NCBI GenBank assembly: GCA_023421635.1
Contig: JAEZSU010000351.1
Coordinates: 1 to 12,590, forward strand
DNA length: 12,590 bases
From: Actinomycetes bacterium
Lineage (GTDB): Bacteria; Actinomycetota; Actinomycetes; Actinomycetales; Microbacteriaceae
Direction of reading: 5' to 3'
Below, in pieces: positions 3,578-12,576 of the stretch; positions within the stretch are counted from its first letter, which is position 1, and each line of letters starts with the position of its first letter. Made by a program: the position numbers and the translations under genes. Below the pieces are notes generated by a model. The model worked only from the letters and a program-made list of their open reading frames with translations, ran no database searches and was not told where the DNA came from.

Positions 3578-3910
3578 TCAGCTGCCGCGATAGGTGCTGT
3601 AGCCGAACGGACTCAGCAGCAGCGGCACGTGGTAGTGCCGCGTGTCGGCGACGGTGAAATGCACCGTGACCTGGGGGTAGAAGGCCTCGACGTCGCGCTC
3701 GGCGAAGTACGCGCCGGTCGCGAAGGTGATCGCGTAGGTACCGGGCTCGAGCGAGTCCGGACCCAGCGCGAGCCTGCCGTCCGCGTCGGTGAAGCCCTCG
3801 GCGACCGTCCGCATCGTGCCGCCCTCGAGCTGATGGTGCAGCGTCACGGCGACGTGCGGCGCGGGTGTGCCGGCGGTCGCGTCGAGGATGTGGGTGGTGA
3901 GGTGGCTCAT
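3578..3910 (-). CDS. uraH: 5-hydroxyisourate hydrolase (transthyretin-related protein)
   Basis: Hydrolyses 5-hydroxyisourate, the product of urate oxidase, to 2-oxo-4-hydroxy-4-carboxy-5-ureidoimidazoline (OHCU). It is 110 residues, the normal length for bacterial HIU hydrolase, and folds like transthyretin as a homotetramer. The hallmarks are all present: the N-terminal THILD block with catalytic His7 followed by GTPAPHVAV, Arg46 in TDADGR, His94 in HYHVPLLLSPFGYSTYRGS, and the C-terminal tetrapeptide YRGS (107-110), which separates HIU hydrolases from true transthyretins. Its ATG overlaps the uraD stop by 4 bp (ATGA), and a GGAGG (3918-3922 on the plus strand as CCTCC) lies 7 nt upstream, so it is translated by coupling from uraD. 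Urate oxidase, the enzyme before it in the pathway, is not in the window. Confidence 0.97.
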   Translation of the reverse strand: MSHLTTHILDATAGTPAPHVAVTLHHQLEGGTMRTVAEGFTDADGRLALGPDSLEPGTYAITFATGAYFAERDVEAFYPQVTVHFTVADTRHYHVPLLLSPFGYSTYRGS

Positions 3911-4431
3911 TCGGCGTCCTCCGGTTCGGTGTCATCGTCCATGACGGTGCTGCGGAGCCGGAGCATCGCGATCTCGGCCAGCTGCGCCGTCGCCTCCCGG
4001 CCCTCGGTCGCGTCGTCGTTCTGCAGGCGCCGGTGCAGTTCGCCCAGGATCTCCTGGGGGCTCCGGCCCGCGGCGCGGATGAGGAACACCCGGCCGAACC
4101 GCTCCTCGTACGCCGCGTTCCCGGCCGCGATCTCCCCCGCCACGTCGTCGGCCGCGGTCGCCATCGCGGCCTGCTCGGAGCGGGATGCCGCAGCCTCCGC
4201 GCCCGAGCCCTTCGGCTTCTCCCCGATCCTCGGGTGGTGCGCGAGGGCGCGGTCGAGGTCGGCGCGCGACCACACCTCCGCAAGCTCGCCGGCATAGGCC
4301 GTCAGGGCGCCGAGGTCGGCGTACGGGCGGCCGGAGACGACCGCATCCACCCAGCCGGGGATGGCCGCCCACACCGCGACCGTCTGCGCCGCGGCGGCGG
4401 GGTCGAGGCTGTTGAACTCGCTCAATCGCAT
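3907..4431 (-). CDS. uraD: OHCU decarboxylase
   Basis: Decarboxylates OHCU stereospecifically to (S)-allantoin, directly after UraH in the urate pathway. It is 174 residues from ATG 4431, normal for the family. Visible motifs are the N-terminal FNSLDPAAAA, HHPRIGEK with catalytic His66 (65-72), SRSEQAAM with Glu86, and FGRVFLIRAAGRSP (112-125), which forms the substrate pocket. The open frame continues 21 codons upstream, but ATG 4431 is preferred since homologues begin just before the FN motif and a TAGGGT box lies 7 nt before it. The C-terminal tail is acidic (DDDTEPEDAE) and likely disordered. It is the first gene of a two-gene leftward operon with uraH and is divergent from allB, so both arms can be controlled from the 4432-4544 region. 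Confidence 0.95.
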   Translation of the reverse strand: MRLSEFNSLDPAAAAQTVAVWAAIPGWVDAVVSGRPYADLGALTAYAGELAEVWSRADLDRALAHHPRIGEKPKGSGAEAAASRSEQAAMATAADDVAGEIAAGNAAYEERFGRVFLIRAAGRSPQEILGELHRRLQNDDATEGREATAQLAEIAMLRLRSTVMDDDTEPEDAE

Positions 4432-4438
4432 GGCGGTC

Positions 4439-4444
4439 ACCCTA
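4439..4444 (-). promoter_or_regulatory. -10 box of leaderless promoter for uraD-uraH
   Basis: TAGGGT on the minus strand is 7 nt upstream of the uraD ATG at 4431, predicting a leaderless transcript. There is no consensus -35, consistent with an activated or repressed promoter. Confidence 0.55.
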
Positions 4445-4492
4445 TCCACCGCATGTGTCGCGTCGGTTTCACCGGCGTCCGCCGTCACGCGC

Positions 4493-4519
4493 AATGTTGG
4501 TCTGAGTTACATTCGCGAA
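4493..4519. promoter_or_regulatory. Candidate operator in the uraD/allB divergent control region
   Basis: Two symmetric elements overlap here. AATGT (4493-4497) and ACATT (4509-4513) are 5-bp inverted arms 11 bp apart, and TTCGCGAA (4512-4519) is a perfect 8-bp palindrome. They are the most AT-rich part of an otherwise GC-rich region and cover roughly -26 to -52 from the predicted allB transcript start. This is a natural place for a regulator sensing a ureide or urate. No regulator gene lies in the window, so the protein cannot be named, and the short arms leave chance possible. Confidence 0.35.
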
Positions 4520-4531: not shown

Positions 4532-4537
4532 TAGCGT
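4532..4537 (+). promoter_or_regulatory. -10 box of leaderless promoter for the allB operon
   Basis: TAGCGT lies 7 nt upstream of ATG 4545, the same arrangement found before the other four transcription-unit starts here. It would drive the six-gene rightward ureide operon. TTACAT at 4507-4512 is a poor -35 candidate with 19 bp spacing. Confidence 0.5.
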
Positions 4538-4544
4538 GGACGCC

Positions 4545-5885
4545 ATGACCGTCCTTCCACCCACGCGGATCGCTGCGCGCCGGGTCTTCATCGACGGCGG
4601 GTTCGTCCCCGCCACCGTCCACGTCGCGGACGGCGCGATCACCGGGATCGCCGCCTTCGACGCCGGCGCGGACACCGTGCTCGCCGACGACGCCGTGCTG
4701 CTTCCCGGCCTCGTCGACTCGCACGTGCACCTGGACGAGCCCGGCCGCACCGAATGGGAGGGCTTCGCCACCGGCACCGCCGCGGCCGCGGCCGGCGGCG
4801 TGACGACGCTCCTCGACATGCCGCTGAATAGCGTGCCGGTGACCACCACCCCCGATGCGCTCGCCGCCAAGCGGGCGGCCGCGGTCGGCAAGCTCGCGGT
4901 GGACGTCGGCTACTGGGGCGGCGCCGTGCCCGAGAACCTCGGTCGGCTGCGCGAGCTCGCCGACGCGGGCGTCGTGGGCTTCAAGTGCTTCCTGCTGCCG
5001 AGCGGCATCGACGAGTTCGGGCACCTGGATGCGGCCCAGCTCGAGGCCGCCCTGACCGAACTCGCCGCATTCGACGGGCTCATGATCGTCCACGCCGAGG
5101 ATCCCACCCGCATCCACGGCGACGGACCACTGGGCGTCCACTACGCCGACTTCCTCGCGTCCCGCCCGCCGGCGAGCGAGCGCGCCGCGATCCGGCTCGT
5201 GATCGAGACCGCCCGGTGCACCGGGGCACGCGTGCACATCGTGCACGTCTCCGACGGCTCCGCGCTCGAGGACGTGCGCGTCGCGAAGGCGGAGGGCGTG
5301 CGGATCACGGTGGAGACCTGCCCGCACTACCTCACGCTGGACGCCGCGCAGGTACCCGACGGCGCCGGCGCCTTCAAGTGCTGCCCGCCCATCCGCGACG
5401 CCGCCAACCAGGACCGGCTGTGGGCCGGTGTCGTCGACGGCACGATCGACGCGATCGTCAGCGACCACTCGCCGGCCACCGCCGCGCTGAAGGGCGAGCC
5501 CGACTTCGGGCTGGCCTGGGGCGGCATCGCCGGGCTGCAGACCGGGCTGGCGGCGATCAACACGGCCGCGCGGGCCCGTGGCATCCCGCTCGAGACCGTG
5601 CTGCCGCTCATGACCACCGGCCCCGCCCGCATCGGCGGGCTCGACGGGCTCGGTCGCATCGAGGTGGGCGCACCGGCGCATCTGACGGTGTTCGCGCCCG
5701 ACGAGGAGCACCTCGTCCGCGCCGCCGACCTCGAGTACCGCAACCCCGTCTCACCCTGGGACGGTTCGACCCTCACCGGCCGCGTCCGCGCGACGTACCT
5801 GCGTGGGGAGGCCGTGTACCGTCACGGCGAGGCGGTGTCGGTGCGACACGGCCGTGAGCTGATCCGCGCGAAGGAGCGAGCGTGA
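4545..5885 (+). CDS. allB: Allantoinase (cyclic amidohydrolase)
   Basis: Hydrolyses the hydantoin ring of allantoin to allantoate. From ATG 4545 it is 446 residues, as expected. It shows the full binuclear-metal set of cyclic amidohydrolases: GLVDSHVHLDEPGRTEWEG (55-73) with His60 and His62, the carboxylated Lys147 in the FKCFL motif characteristic of allantoinases, His183 in MIVHAED, the HIVHVS block with His234, ETCPHYL, KCCPPIR, and DHSP with Asp307. These distances resemble E. coli AllB and exclude dihydroorotase. A GTG nine bases upstream (4536) with a Shine-Dalgarno is the alternative start; I prefer 4545 because a TANNNT box sits 7 nt before it, as at the other unit starts. The stop overlaps the next GTG by 4 bp. 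It is the first gene of the ureide operon. Confidence 0.96.
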   Translation: MTVLPPTRIAARRVFIDGGFVPATVHVADGAITGIAAFDAGADTVLADDAVLLPGLVDSHVHLDEPGRTEWEGFATGTAAAAAGGVTTLLDMPLNSVPVTTTPDALAAKRAAAVGKLAVDVGYWGGAVPENLGRLRELADAGVVGFKCFLLPSGIDEFGHLDAAQLEAALTELAAFDGLMIVHAEDPTRIHGDGPLGVHYADFLASRPPASERAAIRLVIETARCTGARVHIVHVSDGSALEDVRVAKAEGVRITVETCPHYLTLDAAQVPDGAGAFKCCPPIRDAANQDRLWAGVVDGTIDAIVSDHSPATAALKGEPDFGLAWGGIAGLQTGLAAINTAARARGIPLETVLPLMTTGPARIGGLDGLGRIEVGAPAHLTVFAPDEEHLVRAADLEYRNPVSPWDGSTLTGRVRATYLRGEAVYRHGEAVSVRHGRELIRAKERA

Positions 5886-6976
5886 CGTCACAGATCCTGC
5901 AGCCGGGCACCGGCCCCATCCCCGGTGACCACTACCTGCCCGCATCCCCCGACACCGTGCTGTGGGGTCGCCTGCCGTGCGCGCTCGACCCCGCGGTGCT
6001 CACCGTCGAGCCCGGGCAGACCGTCACGATCGACACGGTCAGCCACGAGGGCATCCTCGAGGACCAGGGCAAGGACCCGCTGGCGTACTTCACCGGCAAG
6101 GGCGTGGCCGAGGATGCGGTGCTGACCGACGCGATCGAGATCGCCCGCACGCTCTCGCGCGACGTGATGGCCGACGGCCCGCACGTCGTCACCGGCCCGA
6201 TCCACGTGCGCGGCGCGCAGCCGGGCGACCTGCTGAAGATCACCGTCGAGCAGCTCTCCCCGCGCGTGCCGTACGGCGTCATCTCGAACCGCCACGGCAA
6301 GGGCGCGCTCGTGGGCGAGCTCCCGCGCGGCGAGCACAACGTGAGCGTCTTCGCGCCGGTCGAGGAGCGCGACGCCGGCCCCGTCGGCGTGCTGCCCCTC
6401 ACCGAGGGCGGGGAGCGCGTCGTGGCGTTCCCGCTCGCGCCGTTCCTCGGCACGATGGGCGTCGCGGTCGCCGGGGACGAGCGTCCCCACTCGGTGCCGC
6501 CGGGCAGCCACGGCGGCAACATCGACATCAACCTGCTCGTCGAGGGCGCCGTGCTCTACCTGCCGGTGCAGGTGGAGGGTGCGCTCGCGTACGTCGGCGA
6601 CCCGCACTTCGCGCAGGGCGACGGCGAGGTCGCGCTCACGGCGCTGGAGGCGTCGCTGCGCGCGACGCTCCGGTTCGAGGTCGTGCCGCGCGAGGAGGCG
6701 CTCGCCGCCTTCGGCGAGGTCGCGGGTCCCCTCGTCCGCACCGACGAGTACCTCGTACCGACCGGGCTCGACCCCGACCTCGGCGAGGCGATGCGCCGCT
6801 GCGTCCGCGCCGCGCTGTCGCTCCTGCAGGCGCGGTACGGCATGGACGAGCACCTCGCCTACGCGTACCTGTCCGCAGCCACCGACTTCGACATCTCGCA
6901 GGTCGTCGACATTGTCTGCGGCGTGCACGCCCGCATCCGCGAGGCCGATTTCGCCGCGATCGGAGGCGAGGCGTGA
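5882..6976 (+). CDS. Acetamidase/formamidase (FmdA/AmdA) family amidase
   Basis: A 364-residue member of the FmdA/AmdA family, metal-dependent cytosolic enzymes that release ammonia from short amides such as formamide and acetamide. Family hallmarks are TIDTVSHEG (49-57), DQGKDPLAYF (61-70), GPIHVRGAQPGDLLKI (105-120), YGVISNRHGKGAL (131-143), PPGSHGGNIDINLL (206-219), a block ending LYLPVQVEGALAYVGD, and PHFAQGDGEV (241-250). The GTG start overlaps the allB stop (GTGA) and follows AAGGAG (5871-5876) by 5 nt, so it is translationally tied to allantoinase. Formamide is not an intermediate of purine breakdown. Its place between allB and the amidase fusion suggests a pathway amide: oxamate, released from oxalurate, is the candidate I favour. 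Plain scavenging of formamide or acetamide cannot be excluded. Family certain, substrate inferred. Confidence 0.9.
   Translation: MTSQILQPGTGPIPGDHYLPASPDTVLWGRLPCALDPAVLTVEPGQTVTIDTVSHEGILEDQGKDPLAYFTGKGVAEDAVLTDAIEIARTLSRDVMADGPHVVTGPIHVRGAQPGDLLKITVEQLSPRVPYGVISNRHGKGALVGELPRGEHNVSVFAPVEERDAGPVGVLPLTEGGERVVAFPLAPFLGTMGVAVAGDERPHSVPPGSHGGNIDINLLVEGAVLYLPVQVEGALAYVGDPHFAQGDGEVALTALEASLRATLRFEVVPREEALAAFGEVAGPLVRTDEYLVPTGLDPDLGEAMRRCVRAALSLLQARYGMDEHLAYAYLSAATDFDISQVVDIVCGVHARIREADFAAIGGEA
6962..6966 (+). promoter_or_regulatory. Shine-Dalgarno deciding the GTG start of the AtzH-amidase fusion
   Basis: GGAGG is 6 nt before the GTG at 6973. It supports starting the fusion protein there, just ahead of the complete AtzH-like domain, and not at an internal codon that would yield a stand-alone amidase. 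Confidence 0.7.
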
Positions 6977-8559
6977 GCGCGGTCCGCGAGGAGATCCCGG
7001 CCGACCTGTTCACCGCGTTCGACCGGTACGAGCGGGCGATCCTCGACAACGACCTCGATGTGCTCGACGAGATGTTCGCGCCGGATGCGGGCACGCTCCG
7101 CGGCGACGCGGCGGGACTCCTCGTCGGGCACGACGCGATCAGCGCCTTCCGCGGCGTCCGCGGCGGCGTCGCCCCGCGCGAGATCGAGCGCATCGAGTAC
7201 CGTCCCCTCGGCGAGGGCATCGCCCTGCTCGTGTCCGTGTCGCGGTACCGCGGTGGCGGGACGGGCCTCCAGACCCAGCTCTGGCAGCGGATCGACGGGG
7301 AGTGGCGCATCACCGCCGCGCACGTGTCCGGGCGCCCGCAGGCGCTCGACCGCTCCATCTGGCGTTCGGTGGGCGACCCGCTGCTGCAGGGCGCGTGGGA
7401 GGGCCCGCTCGAGGGACTCAACGTCGCCGTCAAGGATCTCTTCGCGATCGCCGGGTACCGCATCGGTGCCGGCAACCCGGCCTTCCTGGAGTCCGCGAAG
7501 CCGGAACCCAAGACCGCGCCCGCGGTGGCCGATCTGCTGCGCGGCGGGGCGTCGCTGCGCGGCATCGCGCGCACCGACGAGTTCGCGTACTCGATCGCCG
7601 GAGACAACGCCCACTACGGCACACCTCCCAACGGCGGTCTGCCCGGCGCGCTGCCCGGCGGCTCGTCCTCGGGTCCCGCCGCGGCGGTCGCCACCGGCCA
7701 GGCGGAGGTGGGCCTCGCGACCGACACCGCCGGCTCCATCCGCGTCCCCGCCTCGTACCAGGGGCTCTGGGGCCTGCGCACCACGCACGGCCTCGTGCCC
7801 CGGATGGGGATGCTGCCGCTCGCGCAGTCCTTCGACACGGTGGGGTGGCTCACCCGCGACGGCGACACCCTGCAGCGGGTGGCCGACTGGGTGCTCAGCT
7901 ATGACGGGTCGGAGTCCACGGAGAGCGTGTACGGCGAGTCGGGCGACGACCTGCCGTGGCGCTTCGTGGTGCCGCACGAGGTGATGGACGCGCTCGAACC
8001 CGAGACCCGCACCGCCTTCGACGAGCTGCTCGCCCGGCTCGCCGCCGCCGACGACGCCCCGCTCCTGCGGCGGGCGGAGATCGGCGCGCTCGACGAGTAC
8101 TTCGAGCCGTTCCGCATCGTGCAGGGTGCGGAAGCCTGGCGCAACAACGAGCGCTGGCTGCGCGCCCACCCGGGTTCCCTCGGCGCGGCCGTCGCCGAGC
8201 GGTTCCGCATCGCGAGCGAGGTGACCCCTGCCCAGGAGCAGGAGGCGCGCACCCGGCTCGCGGCGCTGCGCGACCGCATCCAGGACGTCGTCCGCGACGC
8301 CGTCCTGATCCTCCCCACCGTCCCCGGGCCGGCGCCGCTGCGCACCGCGGACGGCGCACGCATCGACACCGTGCGCCAGGCGACCCTGCGCATGACCGCG
8401 CCGGCCGCCATCGGGGGCCTGCCCGCCCTGTCCGCCCCGCTGATGACGGTCCCGTCGACGCTCGGCCCCGCCCCGGTCGGGGTGTGCCTCGTGTCGCGGG
8501 CCGGCACCGACATCGCGCTGGTCCGCCTCGCGCGGCGCCTCGCAGCGGTCGTGCGCTGA
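6973..8559 (+). CDS. Fusion of AtzH-like (DUF3225, SnoaL-fold) domain and amidase-signature amidase
   Basis: One 528-residue protein with two catalytic-type domains. Residues about 1-125 match AtzH/HpxZ (DUF3225): AFDRYERAI, LDEMF, TLRGD, VGHDAISAFR, and the closing LWQRIDGEWRITAAHVS. Tyr19 and Arg43 are 24 residues apart, the same spacing as Tyr22 and Arg46 reported as needed for AtzH activity. From about 130 on it is an amidase-signature serine hydrolase with Lys154 (AVKD), cis-Ser231 (GGSSSG) and nucleophile Ser255 (TAGSIR). The amidase lacks the long N-terminal region of GatA-like enzymes and closely resembles plant AMI1-type amidases in GPLEGL, DEFAYSI and AQSFDTVGW. Start GTG overlaps the preceding stop (GTGA). 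In Klebsiella the corresponding parts are separate proteins, HpxZ and HpxY, linked to the oxalurate branch. I infer a ureide such as oxalurate as substrate; another N-carboxy- or carbamoyl-compound is possible. No AtzG-like partner gene is present. Confidence 0.88.
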   Translation: MSAVREEIPADLFTAFDRYERAILDNDLDVLDEMFAPDAGTLRGDAAGLLVGHDAISAFRGVRGGVAPREIERIEYRPLGEGIALLVSVSRYRGGGTGLQTQLWQRIDGEWRITAAHVSGRPQALDRSIWRSVGDPLLQGAWEGPLEGLNVAVKDLFAIAGYRIGAGNPAFLESAKPEPKTAPAVADLLRGGASLRGIARTDEFAYSIAGDNAHYGTPPNGGLPGALPGGSSSGPAAAVATGQAEVGLATDTAGSIRVPASYQGLWGLRTTHGLVPRMGMLPLAQSFDTVGWLTRDGDTLQRVADWVLSYDGSESTESVYGESGDDLPWRFVVPHEVMDALEPETRTAFDELLARLAAADDAPLLRRAEIGALDEYFEPFRIVQGAEAWRNNERWLRAHPGSLGAAVAERFRIASEVTPAQEQEARTRLAALRDRIQDVVRDAVLILPTVPGPAPLRTADGARIDTVRQATLRMTAPAAIGGLPALSAPLMTVPSTLGPAPVGVCLVSRAGTDIALVRLARRLAAVVR

Positions 8560-8583
8560 GCACGTCCGCATCCGAAGAAACAC

Positions 8584-8589
8584 AAGGAG
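8584..8589 (+). promoter_or_regulatory. Shine-Dalgarno of the PucG-like aminotransferase
   Basis: AAGGAG stands 7 nt before the GTG at 8597 and fixes that start. It is one of the strongest ribosome-binding sites in the window and serves the only gene among the first five of the operon that is not overlapped with its predecessor (37-nt gap). Confidence 0.75.
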
Positions 8590-8596
8590 TACCACC

Positions 8597-9823
8597 GTGA
8601 CGATCCCCGGCCCCATCGACCCGCCCGCCCGCCTGCTCATGGGTCCGGGGCCGATCTCGGCCTACCCGTCGGTGCTGCGTGCGATGTCGGCGCCCCTGGT
8701 CGGGCAGTACGACCCGTTCATGACGGCCGCCATGAACGAGACGCAGGAGCTGTACCGCCAGGTGTGGGGCACCCGCAACGAGGGCACGATGCTGATCGAC
8801 GGCACCTCCCGTGCCGGCATCGAGGCCGCGATCGCCTCGCTCGTGCGCCCCGGCGACCGGGTGCTGGTGCCGGTGTTCGGCCGGTTCGGGCACCTCTTGG
8901 CGGAGATCGCCGAGCGCGCCATGGCCGAGGTGCACACGATCGAGACCGAGTGGGGCCAGGTGTTCCCGCCCAGCGTGATCGAGGACGCGATCGTGCGCGT
9001 CAAGCCGACGCTGCTCGCGCTCGTGCAGGGCGACACCTCCACGACGATGAACCAGCCGCTGGAGGAGATCGGCGCCATCTGCGAGCGGCACGGCGTGCTC
9101 TTCTACTCCGACGCGACCGCGTCGCTCGGCGGCAACGCGTTCGAGGCGGACGCCTGGGGACTGGATGCGGCGACGGCGGGCCTGCAGAAGTGCCTCGGCG
9201 GCCCCTCGGGTTCGGCGCCCATCACCCTCAGCGACAAGGCGGTCGAGGTCATCCGCAGCCGCGGCCGCATCGAGGCCGGCATCCGCGAGGCGGGCGACGA
9301 GTCCGCATCCGACTTCGTCCGCTCGAACTACTTCGACCTCGGCATGATCCTCGACTACTGGGGCCCGCGCCGGCTCAACCACCACACCGAGGCGACGAGC
9401 ATGCTCTACGCCGCCCGCGAATGCGCGCGCGTGCTCCTGCTCGAGGGTCGCGACGAGGTCATCGCCCGCCACCGGCTCGCGGGCGACGCCATGCTCGCCG
9501 GCGTCGAGGGCCTCGGCATGCGGGTGTTCGGCGATGTGGCGCACAAGATGAACAACGTCGTGGCCGTGCACATCCCCGGCGGCGTGCCCGGCGACGCCGC
9601 CCGCGCCGCGATGCTCGAGGACTTCGGCATCGAGATCGGCACCTCGTTCGGCCCGCTCCACGGCAAGGTGTGGCGTATCGGCACCATGGGCTACAACGCC
9701 CGGAAGGATGCGGTGCTCATCACGCTCGCAGCCCTCGAGGCGGTCCTTCGCCGGTTCGGCGCCGCGGTGCCCGCGGGCGGCGGCGTGGACGCCGCGGCAG
9801 ACGTGTACGCGGGGCGCGGCTGA
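8597..9823 (+). CDS. pucG: (S)-ureidoglycine:glyoxylate aminotransferase (class V, PucG-like)
   Basis: A PLP-dependent class V aminotransferase of 408 residues, in the alanine:glyoxylate aminotransferase group. UGXT enzymes such as PucG of Bacillus subtilis transfer the amino group of (S)-ureidoglycine to glyoxylate, giving oxalurate and glycine. Motifs: MGPGPI near 15-20 at the N-terminus, GTSRAGIEAA, the PLP-ring Asp172 in YSDATASLGG, the Schiff-base Lys198 in GLQKCLGGPSG, and an NHHTEAT segment (261-267) followed by a C-terminal IGTMGYNARKDAV block. Catabolic context (allantoinase before, allantoate amidohydrolase after) favours UGXT over serine- or alanine-glyoxylate aminotransferase, which are the alternatives. 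Its ATG-proximal neighbour allC starts one base into its stop (TGATG). Unlike an ureidoglycolate route, this step keeps nitrogen as glycine and leaves oxalurate for further cleavage. Confidence 0.85.
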   Translation: MTIPGPIDPPARLLMGPGPISAYPSVLRAMSAPLVGQYDPFMTAAMNETQELYRQVWGTRNEGTMLIDGTSRAGIEAAIASLVRPGDRVLVPVFGRFGHLLAEIAERAMAEVHTIETEWGQVFPPSVIEDAIVRVKPTLLALVQGDTSTTMNQPLEEIGAICERHGVLFYSDATASLGGNAFEADAWGLDAATAGLQKCLGGPSGSAPITLSDKAVEVIRSRGRIEAGIREAGDESASDFVRSNYFDLGMILDYWGPRRLNHHTEATSMLYAARECARVLLLEGRDEVIARHRLAGDAMLAGVEGLGMRVFGDVAHKMNNVVAVHIPGGVPGDAARAAMLEDFGIEIGTSFGPLHGKVWRIGTMGYNARKDAVLITLAALEAVLRRFGAAVPAGGGVDAAADVYAGRG

Positions 9824-11159: not shown

Positions 11160-11164
11160 AGCGT
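11159..11164 (+). promoter_or_regulatory. Possible internal -10 box before the last gene
   Basis: TAGCGT is identical to the box before allB. It would start transcription near 11171 and give an mRNA leader of about 20 nt carrying GAAGGA (11181-11186), 4 nt before ATG 11191. This is not the leaderless spacing. It may allow separate expression of the last gene, but a six-base match is weak evidence. Confidence 0.25.
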
Positions 11165-11190
11165 TGCCGCACCCCGACCAGAAGGAACCC

Positions 11191-12576
11191 ATGTCCAGCA
11201 TGCTCGTCACCGGCGCCCGCCTCATCACCGTGCCCGCTGGCACCGACGACCCCGGCTACATCGACCACGGCTGGATGCTGGTGCAGGACGGTCGCATCGC
11301 CGACATCGGCGCGGGCGAGCCGCCCGCGACGATCCGCGCCGCCGCCGGCGAGGTGCTCGACGTCGACGGCGCCTTCGTCGCGCCCGGGTTCGTCTCCAGC
11401 CACTCGCACCTGTTCACGAGCGGGCTGCGCGGGCTCGGCGCCAACGAGACGCTCTACGGCTGGTGCGACTCGATGCTCGGGTTCACCGCGCACCTGAGCC
11501 CCGAGGACATGTACTGGTCGACGCTGCACGGGGCGCTCGACTTCCTCGCGAACGGCGTCACCACCGCGTACAACTTCACCGATCCGCTGCAGGCGTGGGA
11601 GTCCATGGTCGACGGCAAGCGGCTCGGCGGCGACGCCCCGCTCCGTGACCTGAGCTATCACACCCGGCAGGCGGACGGCTGCCTCGACGCGGGCCTGCGC
11701 TTCGTCGACGCGATCGGCATGGATGTGTCCACCGGCACGGACGACGAGATCTTCGACCGCTTCGCCGCCGAGGTCGCCCACACCAGGTCGCTCGACCCCG
11801 ACCTCGCGCTCGGCGCCTCGATCATGGGGCAGGTGCAGTGGTCCCCCCGTCCCGAGGCCGCCGAGATGGAGGTCGAGGCGATGCGCCGGTTCGGCGTCAC
11901 GAACCAGGCCCACTTCCTCGAGTCGCCCGAGGCCGTCCCGCTGCAGCAGGCGAAGTTCGCGCTGTACCGGGATGCGGGCGCCCTCGGGCCGGACATGATG
12001 TTCGGCCACTTCATCCAGACCACGCAGGAGATCATCCGCGCCACCGCGGAGGCGGGCGCCTCGATGTCGTGGCAGCCCGCATCCAACGGACGGCTCGCGT
12101 CGGGCGTCGCCCTCGTGCCGGAGATGCTCGAGCTCGGGATGCGGGTCGGGATGGGCCTGGACGACCAGGCCTGCACCGACATCGCCGACCCGTGGGGCAA
12201 CATGCGCGCCGGCGTCTTCATGCAGCGGGCACGCACCAAGGACCCGCTGTCGATGACGCCGGAGCGGGTGCTGCGGCTGCACACCCTCGGCGGCGCACGC
12301 ATCCTCGGCGTGGACGACCGGGTGGGCAGCCTCGAGGTGGGCAAGTTCGCCGACTTCGTCGTCGTGGATCCGCGGATGCCCGACGTCGGCCCGCTGTGGC
12401 ACCCGGTGCGCACCTACGTGCTGTCGATGAGCCTGCGGAACCTCAAGCGCGTCTACGTCGGCGGCGAGCTCGTGAGCGAGGAGGGGCGGTCCACCAACCC
12501 CCTCGCGGCCGAGGCGTCGGCCAGGCTGCACGCAGACCTGCCGGCGCGCGCAGCCCGCGTCGGCCACCCGCGCTGA
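11191..12576 (+). CDS. ATZ/TRZ-type amidohydrolase (purine/triazine deaminase-like)
   Basis: A 461-residue metal-dependent amidohydrolase of the ATZ/TRZ group, which holds AtzB, TrzN, 8-oxoguanine deaminase and guanine deaminase relatives that remove amino or other groups from heterocycles. The start ATG 11191 follows GAAGGA by 4 nt. The single-metal site is visible: HSHLF with His71 and His73 after APGFVSS, HFLE with His241 and Glu244, GHF with His273, and GLDDQ with Asp324; WQPASNGRLASG (294-305) is the usual SNxxLxxG block. A C-terminal VGSLEVGKFADFVVVDPR closes the beta-sandwich. It follows allC in the ureide operon after 54 bp. A deaminase feeding guanine, 8-oxoguanine or another amino-purine into the pathway would fit, but the active-site surroundings do not identify the substrate. 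Class is sure, function open. Confidence 0.82.
   Translation: MSSMLVTGARLITVPAGTDDPGYIDHGWMLVQDGRIADIGAGEPPATIRAAAGEVLDVDGAFVAPGFVSSHSHLFTSGLRGLGANETLYGWCDSMLGFTAHLSPEDMYWSTLHGALDFLANGVTTAYNFTDPLQAWESMVDGKRLGGDAPLRDLSYHTRQADGCLDAGLRFVDAIGMDVSTGTDDEIFDRFAAEVAHTRSLDPDLALGASIMGQVQWSPRPEAAEMEVEAMRRFGVTNQAHFLESPEAVPLQQAKFALYRDAGALGPDMMFGHFIQTTQEIIRATAEAGASMSWQPASNGRLASGVALVPEMLELGMRVGMGLDDQACTDIADPWGNMRAGVFMQRARTKDPLSMTPERVLRLHTLGGARILGVDDRVGSLEVGKFADFVVVDPRMPDVGPLWHPVRTYVLSMSLRNLKRVYVGGELVSEEGRSTNPLAAEASARLHADLPARAARVGHPR

What the first reader, a model, noticed from the sequence alone, without database searches (positions are those of the whole stretch)
6973..8559. AtzH-like domain fused to an amidase in a purine operon: possible single-chain oxalurate hydrolase
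Seen: one open frame with a complete DUF3225 domain (Tyr19 and Arg43 with the same spacing as the AtzH residues Tyr22/Arg46) followed by a complete amidase-signature triad Lys154-Ser231-Ser255. Known, from recall: in the cyanuric acid pathway AtzG, AtzE and AtzH are separate proteins, AtzE being an amidase that needs AtzG and AtzH acting on 1,3-dicarboxyurea; Klebsiella hpxWXYZ encodes the same trio for the oxalurate stage of hypoxanthine use. Inferred: the fusion carries both activities in one chain, passes an unstable carboxylated intermediate between sites, and replaces the AtzG-dependent enzyme, since no AtzG-like gene is present. The 37-bp gap after it and the overlaps around it leave no room for AtzG.
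Basis: partly seen in the sequence, partly recalled or inferred. Interest (0 to 1): 0.75.

Follow-up and report, generated by a model that had tools for sequence, protein, structure and literature searches.

The report
Fused amidase for purine breakdown
In Microbacterium and related soil bacteria, two enzyme parts that other bacteria make as separate proteins are joined in one protein, which sits among the purine-breakdown genes just where an enzyme for the intermediate oxalurate is expected, and which probably does that job.

Summary
Confirmed: 6973-8559 (+) encodes one 528-aa chain, AtzH-like domain (6-119) then amidase (143-516), in a uricolytic operon. It is no oddity. In 199 sampled genomes of the Microbacterium ulmi family, all 52 with an AtzH-like match over cut-off have it fused this way; 51 of these 52 also carry the oxalurate-forming aminotransferase UGXT encoded next door, against 6 of the other 147. 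A formamidase-family gene (FmdA) lies directly upstream in 46 of 52. All 57 UGXT genomes have the amidase; AtzG and AllG were found in none of the 57. Seven AtzH pocket residues and the Lys-Ser-Ser triad are identical in 39 of 39 aligned fusions. Best reading: the amidase deaminates oxalurate, the AtzH domain decarboxylates the product, FmdA hydrolyses oxamate, in place of HpxWXYZ. Corrections: the amidase is PRK08310-like, not AtzE/HpxY-like; the AtzH domain was lost about seven times while the amidase stayed, so it looks accessory. Side support: a separate, opposite-order amidase-AtzH fusion, and an FmdA-amidase single frame in M. kunmingense. Against: the amidase site residues are shared with stand-alone amidases of unknown substrate, and two fusions lie outside purine clusters. 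Activity is untested; site geometry could not be measured.

The parts
6973..8559 (+). AtzH-like/amidase fusion, 528 aa
   Evidence: one open frame; both Pfam domains over cut-off
6988..7329 (+). AtzH-like domain, residues 6-119; pocket Tyr19, Arg43, Arg60, Arg63, Arg69, Gln100, Gln102
   Evidence: PF11533 75 bits; residues identical in 39 of 39 fusions
7399..8520 (+). amidase-signature domain, residues 143-516; Lys154, Ser231, Ser255
   Evidence: PF01425 173 bits; residues identical in 39 of 39 fusions
5882..6976 (+). FmdA_AmdA-family (acetamidase/formamidase) protein, proposed oxamate hydrolase
   Evidence: PF03069 108 bits; NCBIfam formamidase 71 bits, far under its cut-off of 500; directly upstream of the fusion in 46 of 52 genomes
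8597..9823 (+). ureidoglycine-glyoxylate aminotransferase (UGXT), forms oxalurate
   Evidence: best solved relative 3nnk of that name, 585 bits; PucG 3isl 438 bits
9826..11136 (+). allantoate amidohydrolase (start chosen by me within a longer open frame)
   Evidence: NCBIfam NF006775 489.5 bits, cut-off 479
4536..5885 (+). allantoinase AllB
   Evidence: TIGR03178 527.8 bits, cut-off 357.85
3907..4494 (-). OHCU decarboxylase
   Evidence: TIGR03180 168.4 bits, cut-off 139.4
3578..3910 (-). 5-hydroxyisourate hydrolase
   Evidence: TIGR02962 131.7 bits, cut-off 87.45

Best explanation
The fusion is the oxalurate-consuming enzyme of an aerobic uricolytic route. Inferred steps: AllB and allantoate amidohydrolase turn allantoin into ureidoglycine; UGXT turns ureidoglycine plus glyoxylate into oxalurate plus glycine; the amidase domain (Ser255 nucleophile) hydrolyses the terminal carbamoyl amide of oxalurate to N-carboxyoxamate and ammonia; the AtzH domain (Tyr19, Arg43, arginine-rich pocket) speeds decarboxylation of that unstable carbamate to oxamate; the upstream FmdA-family enzyme splits oxamate into oxalate and ammonia. 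This does the work of HpxWXYZ with a different amidase and a different last enzyme, and without AtzG. Shown here: domains, residues, the gene module and its co-inheritance. Inferred: every substrate and reaction. Because the AtzH domain was lost repeatedly, I take it to accelerate a step that can also run by itself.
For: UGXT is the next gene. In 199 genomes AtzH and UGXT occur together in 51, AtzH alone in 1, UGXT alone in 6, neither in 141; 44 of 51 within 10 kb. All 57 UGXT genomes have the amidase: 51 fused, 6 without AtzH. FmdA directly upstream in 46 of 52 and in 35 of 36 named loci, the one miss being a contig end. Where the module is split, the parts are still in the genome. AllG (E. 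coli oxalurate route) in 5 of 199 genomes, none of the 57 with UGXT; the E. coli control rang. AtzG in 0 of 199, positive control in G594. Pocket and triad identical in 39 of 39. Independent joinings: opposite-order fusion, FmdA-amidase single frame in M. kunmingense.
Against: No activity data. The amidase's conserved site residues checked (Arg381, Gln384, Arg410) are shared with most of 103 stand-alone relatives, so nothing in them points to oxalurate. AtzH was lost in 7 places (6 forced) and is degenerate in an eighth. G291 and G535 carry the fusion beside ABC transporters with no UGXT found. FmdA is not found with UGXT in G438 and G505; at E 1e-80 it occurs in 3 genomes without UGXT. In the G432/G505 pair the amidase has the highest dN/dS of four genes tested. 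The genomes are related, so the association is linkage by descent in part.
Confidence: 0.5

Rival explanations
1. The amidase domain alone acts on oxalurate (perhaps to urea and oxalate), and the AtzH domain is only a dimerising or stabilising NTF2-type scaffold.
For: AtzH is absent from 7 amidases inside the fusion clade and degenerate in an eighth, with the triad kept in all 8; one loss is a clean in-frame excision (G432 against G505).
Against: Seven pocket residues identical in 39 of 39 fusions with 45-78% identity to the window; a bare scaffold would not need them. An AtzH domain was joined to such an amidase at least twice, in opposite orders.
Confidence: 0.22
2. The substrate is another ureide or N-carbamoyl compound of purine or pyrimidine breakdown, and oxalurate is handled by an enzyme not yet known.
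For: Two fusions lie outside purine clusters (G291: GntR, solute-binding protein, amidohydrolase, ABC transporter; G535: ABC transporter). In G034 separate AtzH and amidase genes flank an isochorismatase-family gene.
Against: 51 of 52 co-occurrence with UGXT, 44 of 51 within 10 kb, in the same order across most loci.
Confidence: 0.16
3. A general or aryl-acetamide amidase of the PRK08310 kind whose AtzH domain and purine neighbours are incidental.
For: Best NCBIfam match is 'amidase' PRK08310, 367.8 bits; many stand-alone relatives are named only 'amidase'. The likeness to plant indole-3-acetamide hydrolase is recalled, not tested.
Against: Co-inheritance with UGXT and FmdA in 199 genomes and lasting gene order.
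Confidence: 0.06

Closest known systems
AtzG-AtzE-AtzH of Pseudomonas sp. ADP (PMC6219798; abstract, section 14 and passages seen)
   Same: Amidase plus AtzH-type domain; catalytic Tyr/Arg pair and 7 of 9 listed pocket residues kept
   Different: Three separate proteins there; AtzE is a different amidase subfamily and is paired with AtzG, which was not found here; cyanuric acid pathway
ggt-atzG-atzE-atzH clusters of enterobacteria (PMC6219798, section 14), the same as hpxWXYZ by recall
   Different: Separate genes with AtzG; a gamma-glutamyltransferase-family enzyme (HpxW, oxamate amidohydrolase: PMC5270733, passage) instead of FmdA. HpxZ model 68.6 bits, cut-off 135
AllFGH oxamic transcarbamylase of E. 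coli (PMC11326118; abstract start and passages seen)
   Same: Consumes oxalurate from allantoin
   Different: Unrelated three-subunit enzyme giving carbamoyl phosphate and oxamate; AllG in 0 of 57 UGXT genomes
PRK08310 stand-alone amidases
   Same: Closest amidase subfamily; Arg381, Gln384 and Arg410 shared
   Different: No AtzH domain; substrate not known to me

Membership tests
AtzH-like (PF11533) | Profile score over the curated cut-off | tested here: met
   75 bits, cut-off 27
AtzH-like (PF11533) | Tyr22/Arg46 pair and arginine-rich pocket of AtzH | tested here: met
   Tyr, Arg and five more of nine pocket residues identical in 39 of 39; Phe94 and Arg96 not kept
AtzH-like (PF11533) | Decarboxylating activity on a dicarboxylated urea or amide | not testable with these tools
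   needs an assay
HpxZ (NF033625) | Equivalog score over cut-off | tested here: not met
   68.6 bits, cut-off 135
Amidase signature family (PF01425) | Lys-Ser-Ser triad | tested here: met
   Lys154, Ser231, Ser255 identical in 39 of 39
AtzE/HpxY amidases | AtzE model scores over cut-off | tested here: not met
   153.3 (cut-off 425.75) and 159.3 (cut-off 461)
AtzE/HpxY amidases | AtzG partner | tested here: not met
   no room in the operon; AtzG-like in 0 of 199 family genomes, control found in G594 at 32 bits; the window's own genome is not held
PRK08310 amidase (NF006169) | Equivalog score over cut-off | tested here: not met
   367.8 bits, cut-off 391: closest model, just short
HpxWXYZ-type oxalurate system | Oxalurate to oxamate to oxalate | not testable with these tools
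   needs an assay; HpxW relatives were not searched

The most novel reading that the evidence does not exclude
Actinobacteria evolved a third, independent route for oxalurate: a single-chain, AtzG-free deaminase-decarboxylase (AtzH domain fused to a non-AtzE amidase) working with an FmdA-family oxamate amidohydrolase. The joining of AtzH to such an amidase happened at least twice, in opposite orders, and the AtzH half is an accelerator that some lineages have shed.
Probability: 0.45. Interest if true: 0.65.

Novelty: new variant of a known kind. Interest (0 to 1): 0.55.

Why it matters
UGXT makes oxalurate, yet AtzG (of the HpxWXYZ type of system) and AllG (of the transcarbamylase) were not found in the 57 sampled genomes with UGXT. 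The module names a directly testable candidate for the missing step, suggests a substrate (oxamate) for an FmdA subfamily, and offers natural pairs with and without the AtzH domain for asking what that little-understood domain adds to an amidase.

Tried and rejected
Artefact: rejected, since all 120 listed relatives have both domains in this order. An antisense frame (6859-8640, -) was picked over this one by my crude codon-bias caller; rejected because the + frame has two conserved domains.

Geometry: the AlphaFold2 model is good (mean pLDDT 91.5, pTM 0.78), but no coordinates are given out, so whether the two sites face each other stays open. The PDB comparisons were filled by the amidase part; AtzH entries are not among the rows shown, which says nothing on the AtzH domain.

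An oxalurate-specific residue in the amidase: sought. Positions peculiar to the fusions are mostly in the linker (130-137), plus Ala199, Gly225, Leu265, Pro400; none points to a substrate.

The first AtzG search had no control that rang; repeated in four genomes with a looser limit, where only G594 was over cut-off. In the first tree rows L130, L131, L145 and L146 have long branches and unsure places; a second tree with more stand-alone amidases was built for the question of two origins. There P0132 joins a stand-alone amidase weakly, so the opposite-order fusion may have one or two origins. In one search I took G550 C53 for two genes because my script began at the wrong start; one search showed one frame. 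The search behind the 38 named loci used six short peptides of the window and favours close relatives; the genome samples do not have that bias. Paper searches that listed nothing on the fusion.

Full report
What is there. The frame 6973-8559 (+) is open and codes for 528 residues. It holds an AtzH-like domain (PF11533, residues 6-119, 75 bits) and an amidase (PF01425, residues 143-516, 173 bits), both well over their cut-offs of 27. The gene before it overlaps by 4 bp; the next starts after 37 bp. Around it lie 5-hydroxyisourate hydrolase, OHCU decarboxylase, allantoinase and allantoate amidohydrolase, each over an NCBIfam cut-off, an FmdA_AmdA-family protein (108 bits) and a class V aminotransferase. 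The aminotransferase is a ureidoglycine-glyoxylate aminotransferase (UGXT): its best solved relative is 3nnk, so named, at 585 bits over 400 residues, then PucG 3isl at 438 bits. That ureidoglycine aminotransferase leads to oxalurate is stated for B. subtilis in PMC5270733 (passage); the full equation is recalled. The source is most likely a Microbacterium: closest named protein 89% identical, a Microbacterium MAG locus 90%. The window's own genome is not held.

Residues. PMC6219798 (abstract, section 14, passages) lists nine pocket residues of AtzH. By the alignment and the counts, seven of them (Tyr22, Arg46, Arg63, Arg66, Arg73, Gln106, Gln108) are Tyr19, Arg43, Arg60, Arg63, Arg69, Gln100 and Gln102 here, identical in 39 of 39 fusions that I chose from those in hand; these have 45-78% identity to the window. 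Phe94 and Arg96 are not kept. Lys154, Ser231 and Ser255 are identical in 39 of 39.

Which amidase. The two AtzE models score 153 and 159 bits against cut-offs of 426 and 461; PRK08310 scores 368, just under its 391. In a tree of 60 rows with stand-alone amidases the forward fusions form one clade (100/98), with Microbacteriaceae, Cellulomonas, Streptomyces and Frankia-type members. Arg381, Gln384 and Arg410 are shared with most of 103 stand-alone relatives, so they do not tell the substrate.

Survey. 199 genomes of the family of Microbacterium ulmi (G001) were searched. AtzH-like over cut-off: 52. UGXT at E 1e-100: 57. FmdA at E 1e-80: 55. AtzH and UGXT both: 51; AtzH only: 1 (G535); UGXT only: 6; neither: 141. 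UGXT and FmdA both: 52; of the 5 UGXT genomes without an FmdA hit, 3 (G468, G495, G519) show one in my own comparison and 2 (G438, G505) do not; FmdA without UGXT: 3. In all 52 AtzH genomes an AtzH domain is in one frame with an amidase, and FmdA is directly upstream on the same strand in 46. AtzH is within 10 kb of UGXT in 44 of 51, on the same strand in 43; of the other 7, six have them on different contigs and one 458 kb apart. The Fisher value (1.8e-39) ignores kinship of the genomes. In 396 genomes of the phylum, 8 have AtzH over cut-off; 5 of the 8 are forward fusions (G001, G217, G291, G319, G346), and 4 of these 5 have UGXT at 73-90% identity, G291 having none at E 1e-60. Of 38 named loci, 36 hold the fusion; FmdA precedes and UGXT follows in 35 of 36 each, the misses being contig ends (L022, L002).

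The module taken apart. G405, G487 and G548 keep FmdA beside UGXT while the fusion lies elsewhere (in G405 and G548 beside recR and an aspartokinase gene). G429, G440, G502 and G570 keep FmdA beside the fusion while UGXT lies elsewhere. The parts stay in one genome.

Competing routes. AllG, part of the E. coli oxalurate enzyme (PMC11326118, abstract start and passages), is in 5 of 199 genomes and 0 of the 57 with UGXT; the E. coli control rang. AtzG-like: 0 of 199, with the control G594 over cut-off. HpxW relatives were not searched.

Losses. The 6 UGXT genomes without AtzH over cut-off, and M. kunmingense (no AtzH match in its genome at E 0.1), hold the amidase without a recognisable AtzH domain. 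In a tree of 74 rows these 7 fall in 7 places inside the fusion clade, 6 forced by well-supported branches. In G432, against its sister G505, the AtzH part is cut out in frame, leaving the N-terminus and the amidase. G065 has a shortened AtzH domain. The triad is intact in all 8, though Arg381 is replaced in G468 and G065. For G432/G505, dN/dS is about 0.50 for the amidase, 0.14 UGXT, 0.29 allantoate amidohydrolase, 0.19 allantoinase: constraint on that amidase may be relaxing. My reading: the AtzH step helps but is not essential, as expected of a carbamate that also decarboxylates by itself (inference).

Further joinings. In M. kunmingense FmdA and amidase share one open frame without a stop. 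In G550, besides the usual fusion, a 518-aa protein has the amidase first and AtzH last. Ten database relatives have that order, among them Herbiconiux, Agreia and Cellulomonas proteins. In the six that I aligned, the tyrosine and nearly all of the seven pocket residues are kept (P0122 has Gln for Arg66). They lie outside the forward-fusion clade. The G550 gene stands beside a ureidoglycolate-lyase-family gene and an FAD-enzyme gene. In G490 an amidase and an AtzH gene are adjacent but separate (L146). In G034 AtzH, an isochorismatase-family protein and a PRK08310-like amidase are three successive genes.

Known or new. Databases name such proteins 'AtzH-like' or 'DUF3225 domain-containing protein', so the architecture is visible in annotation. 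In the paper library DUF3225 occurs in one paper, whose text has neither 'fused' nor 'fusion'; the other searches listed nothing on it. I rate it a new variant of a known kind.

Noticed in passing
L145:9079-10635 (-); P0122-P0129, P0132, P0133: Opposite-order fusion, amidase first and AtzH last, beside a ureidoglycolate-lyase-family gene; outside the forward-fusion clade.
   Followed up: partly
L033:8330-11218 (+): In Microbacterium kunmingense FmdA and amidase are in one open frame and the AtzH domain is gone.
   Followed up: yes
L135 against L197: Sister genomes G432 and G505: clean in-frame excision of the AtzH domain from the fusion.
   Followed up: yes
L147, L152: Fusions that lie alone beside recR and aspartokinase genes while FmdA and UGXT stay together elsewhere.
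   Followed up: partly
L144:6525-10008 (-): G034: separate genes for AtzH-like, isochorismatase-family, PRK08310-like amidase, cupin and short-chain dehydrogenase in a row.
   Followed up: partly
L142:9312-14162: G291: fusion followed by GntR regulator, solute-binding protein, amidohydrolase and ABC transporter genes, no UGXT found; perhaps another substrate.
   Followed up: partly
P0130, P0131: Proteins of about 780 aa with two amidase domains in tandem; the two halves fall in different places of the tree.
   Followed up: no
P0190: Amidase with a Cupin_2 domain; its amidase is sister to that of G034, which has a separate cupin gene.
   Followed up: no
L010: A record named Planococcus sp. APC 4015 carries the Microbacterium-like module, fusion 76% identical; the record may be misnamed.
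   Followed up: no
window 11164-12576 (+): Amidohydrolase-family gene at the end of the operon, under every listed NCBIfam cut-off (8-oxoguanine deaminase model 160 bits, cut-off 532); role open.
   Followed up: no
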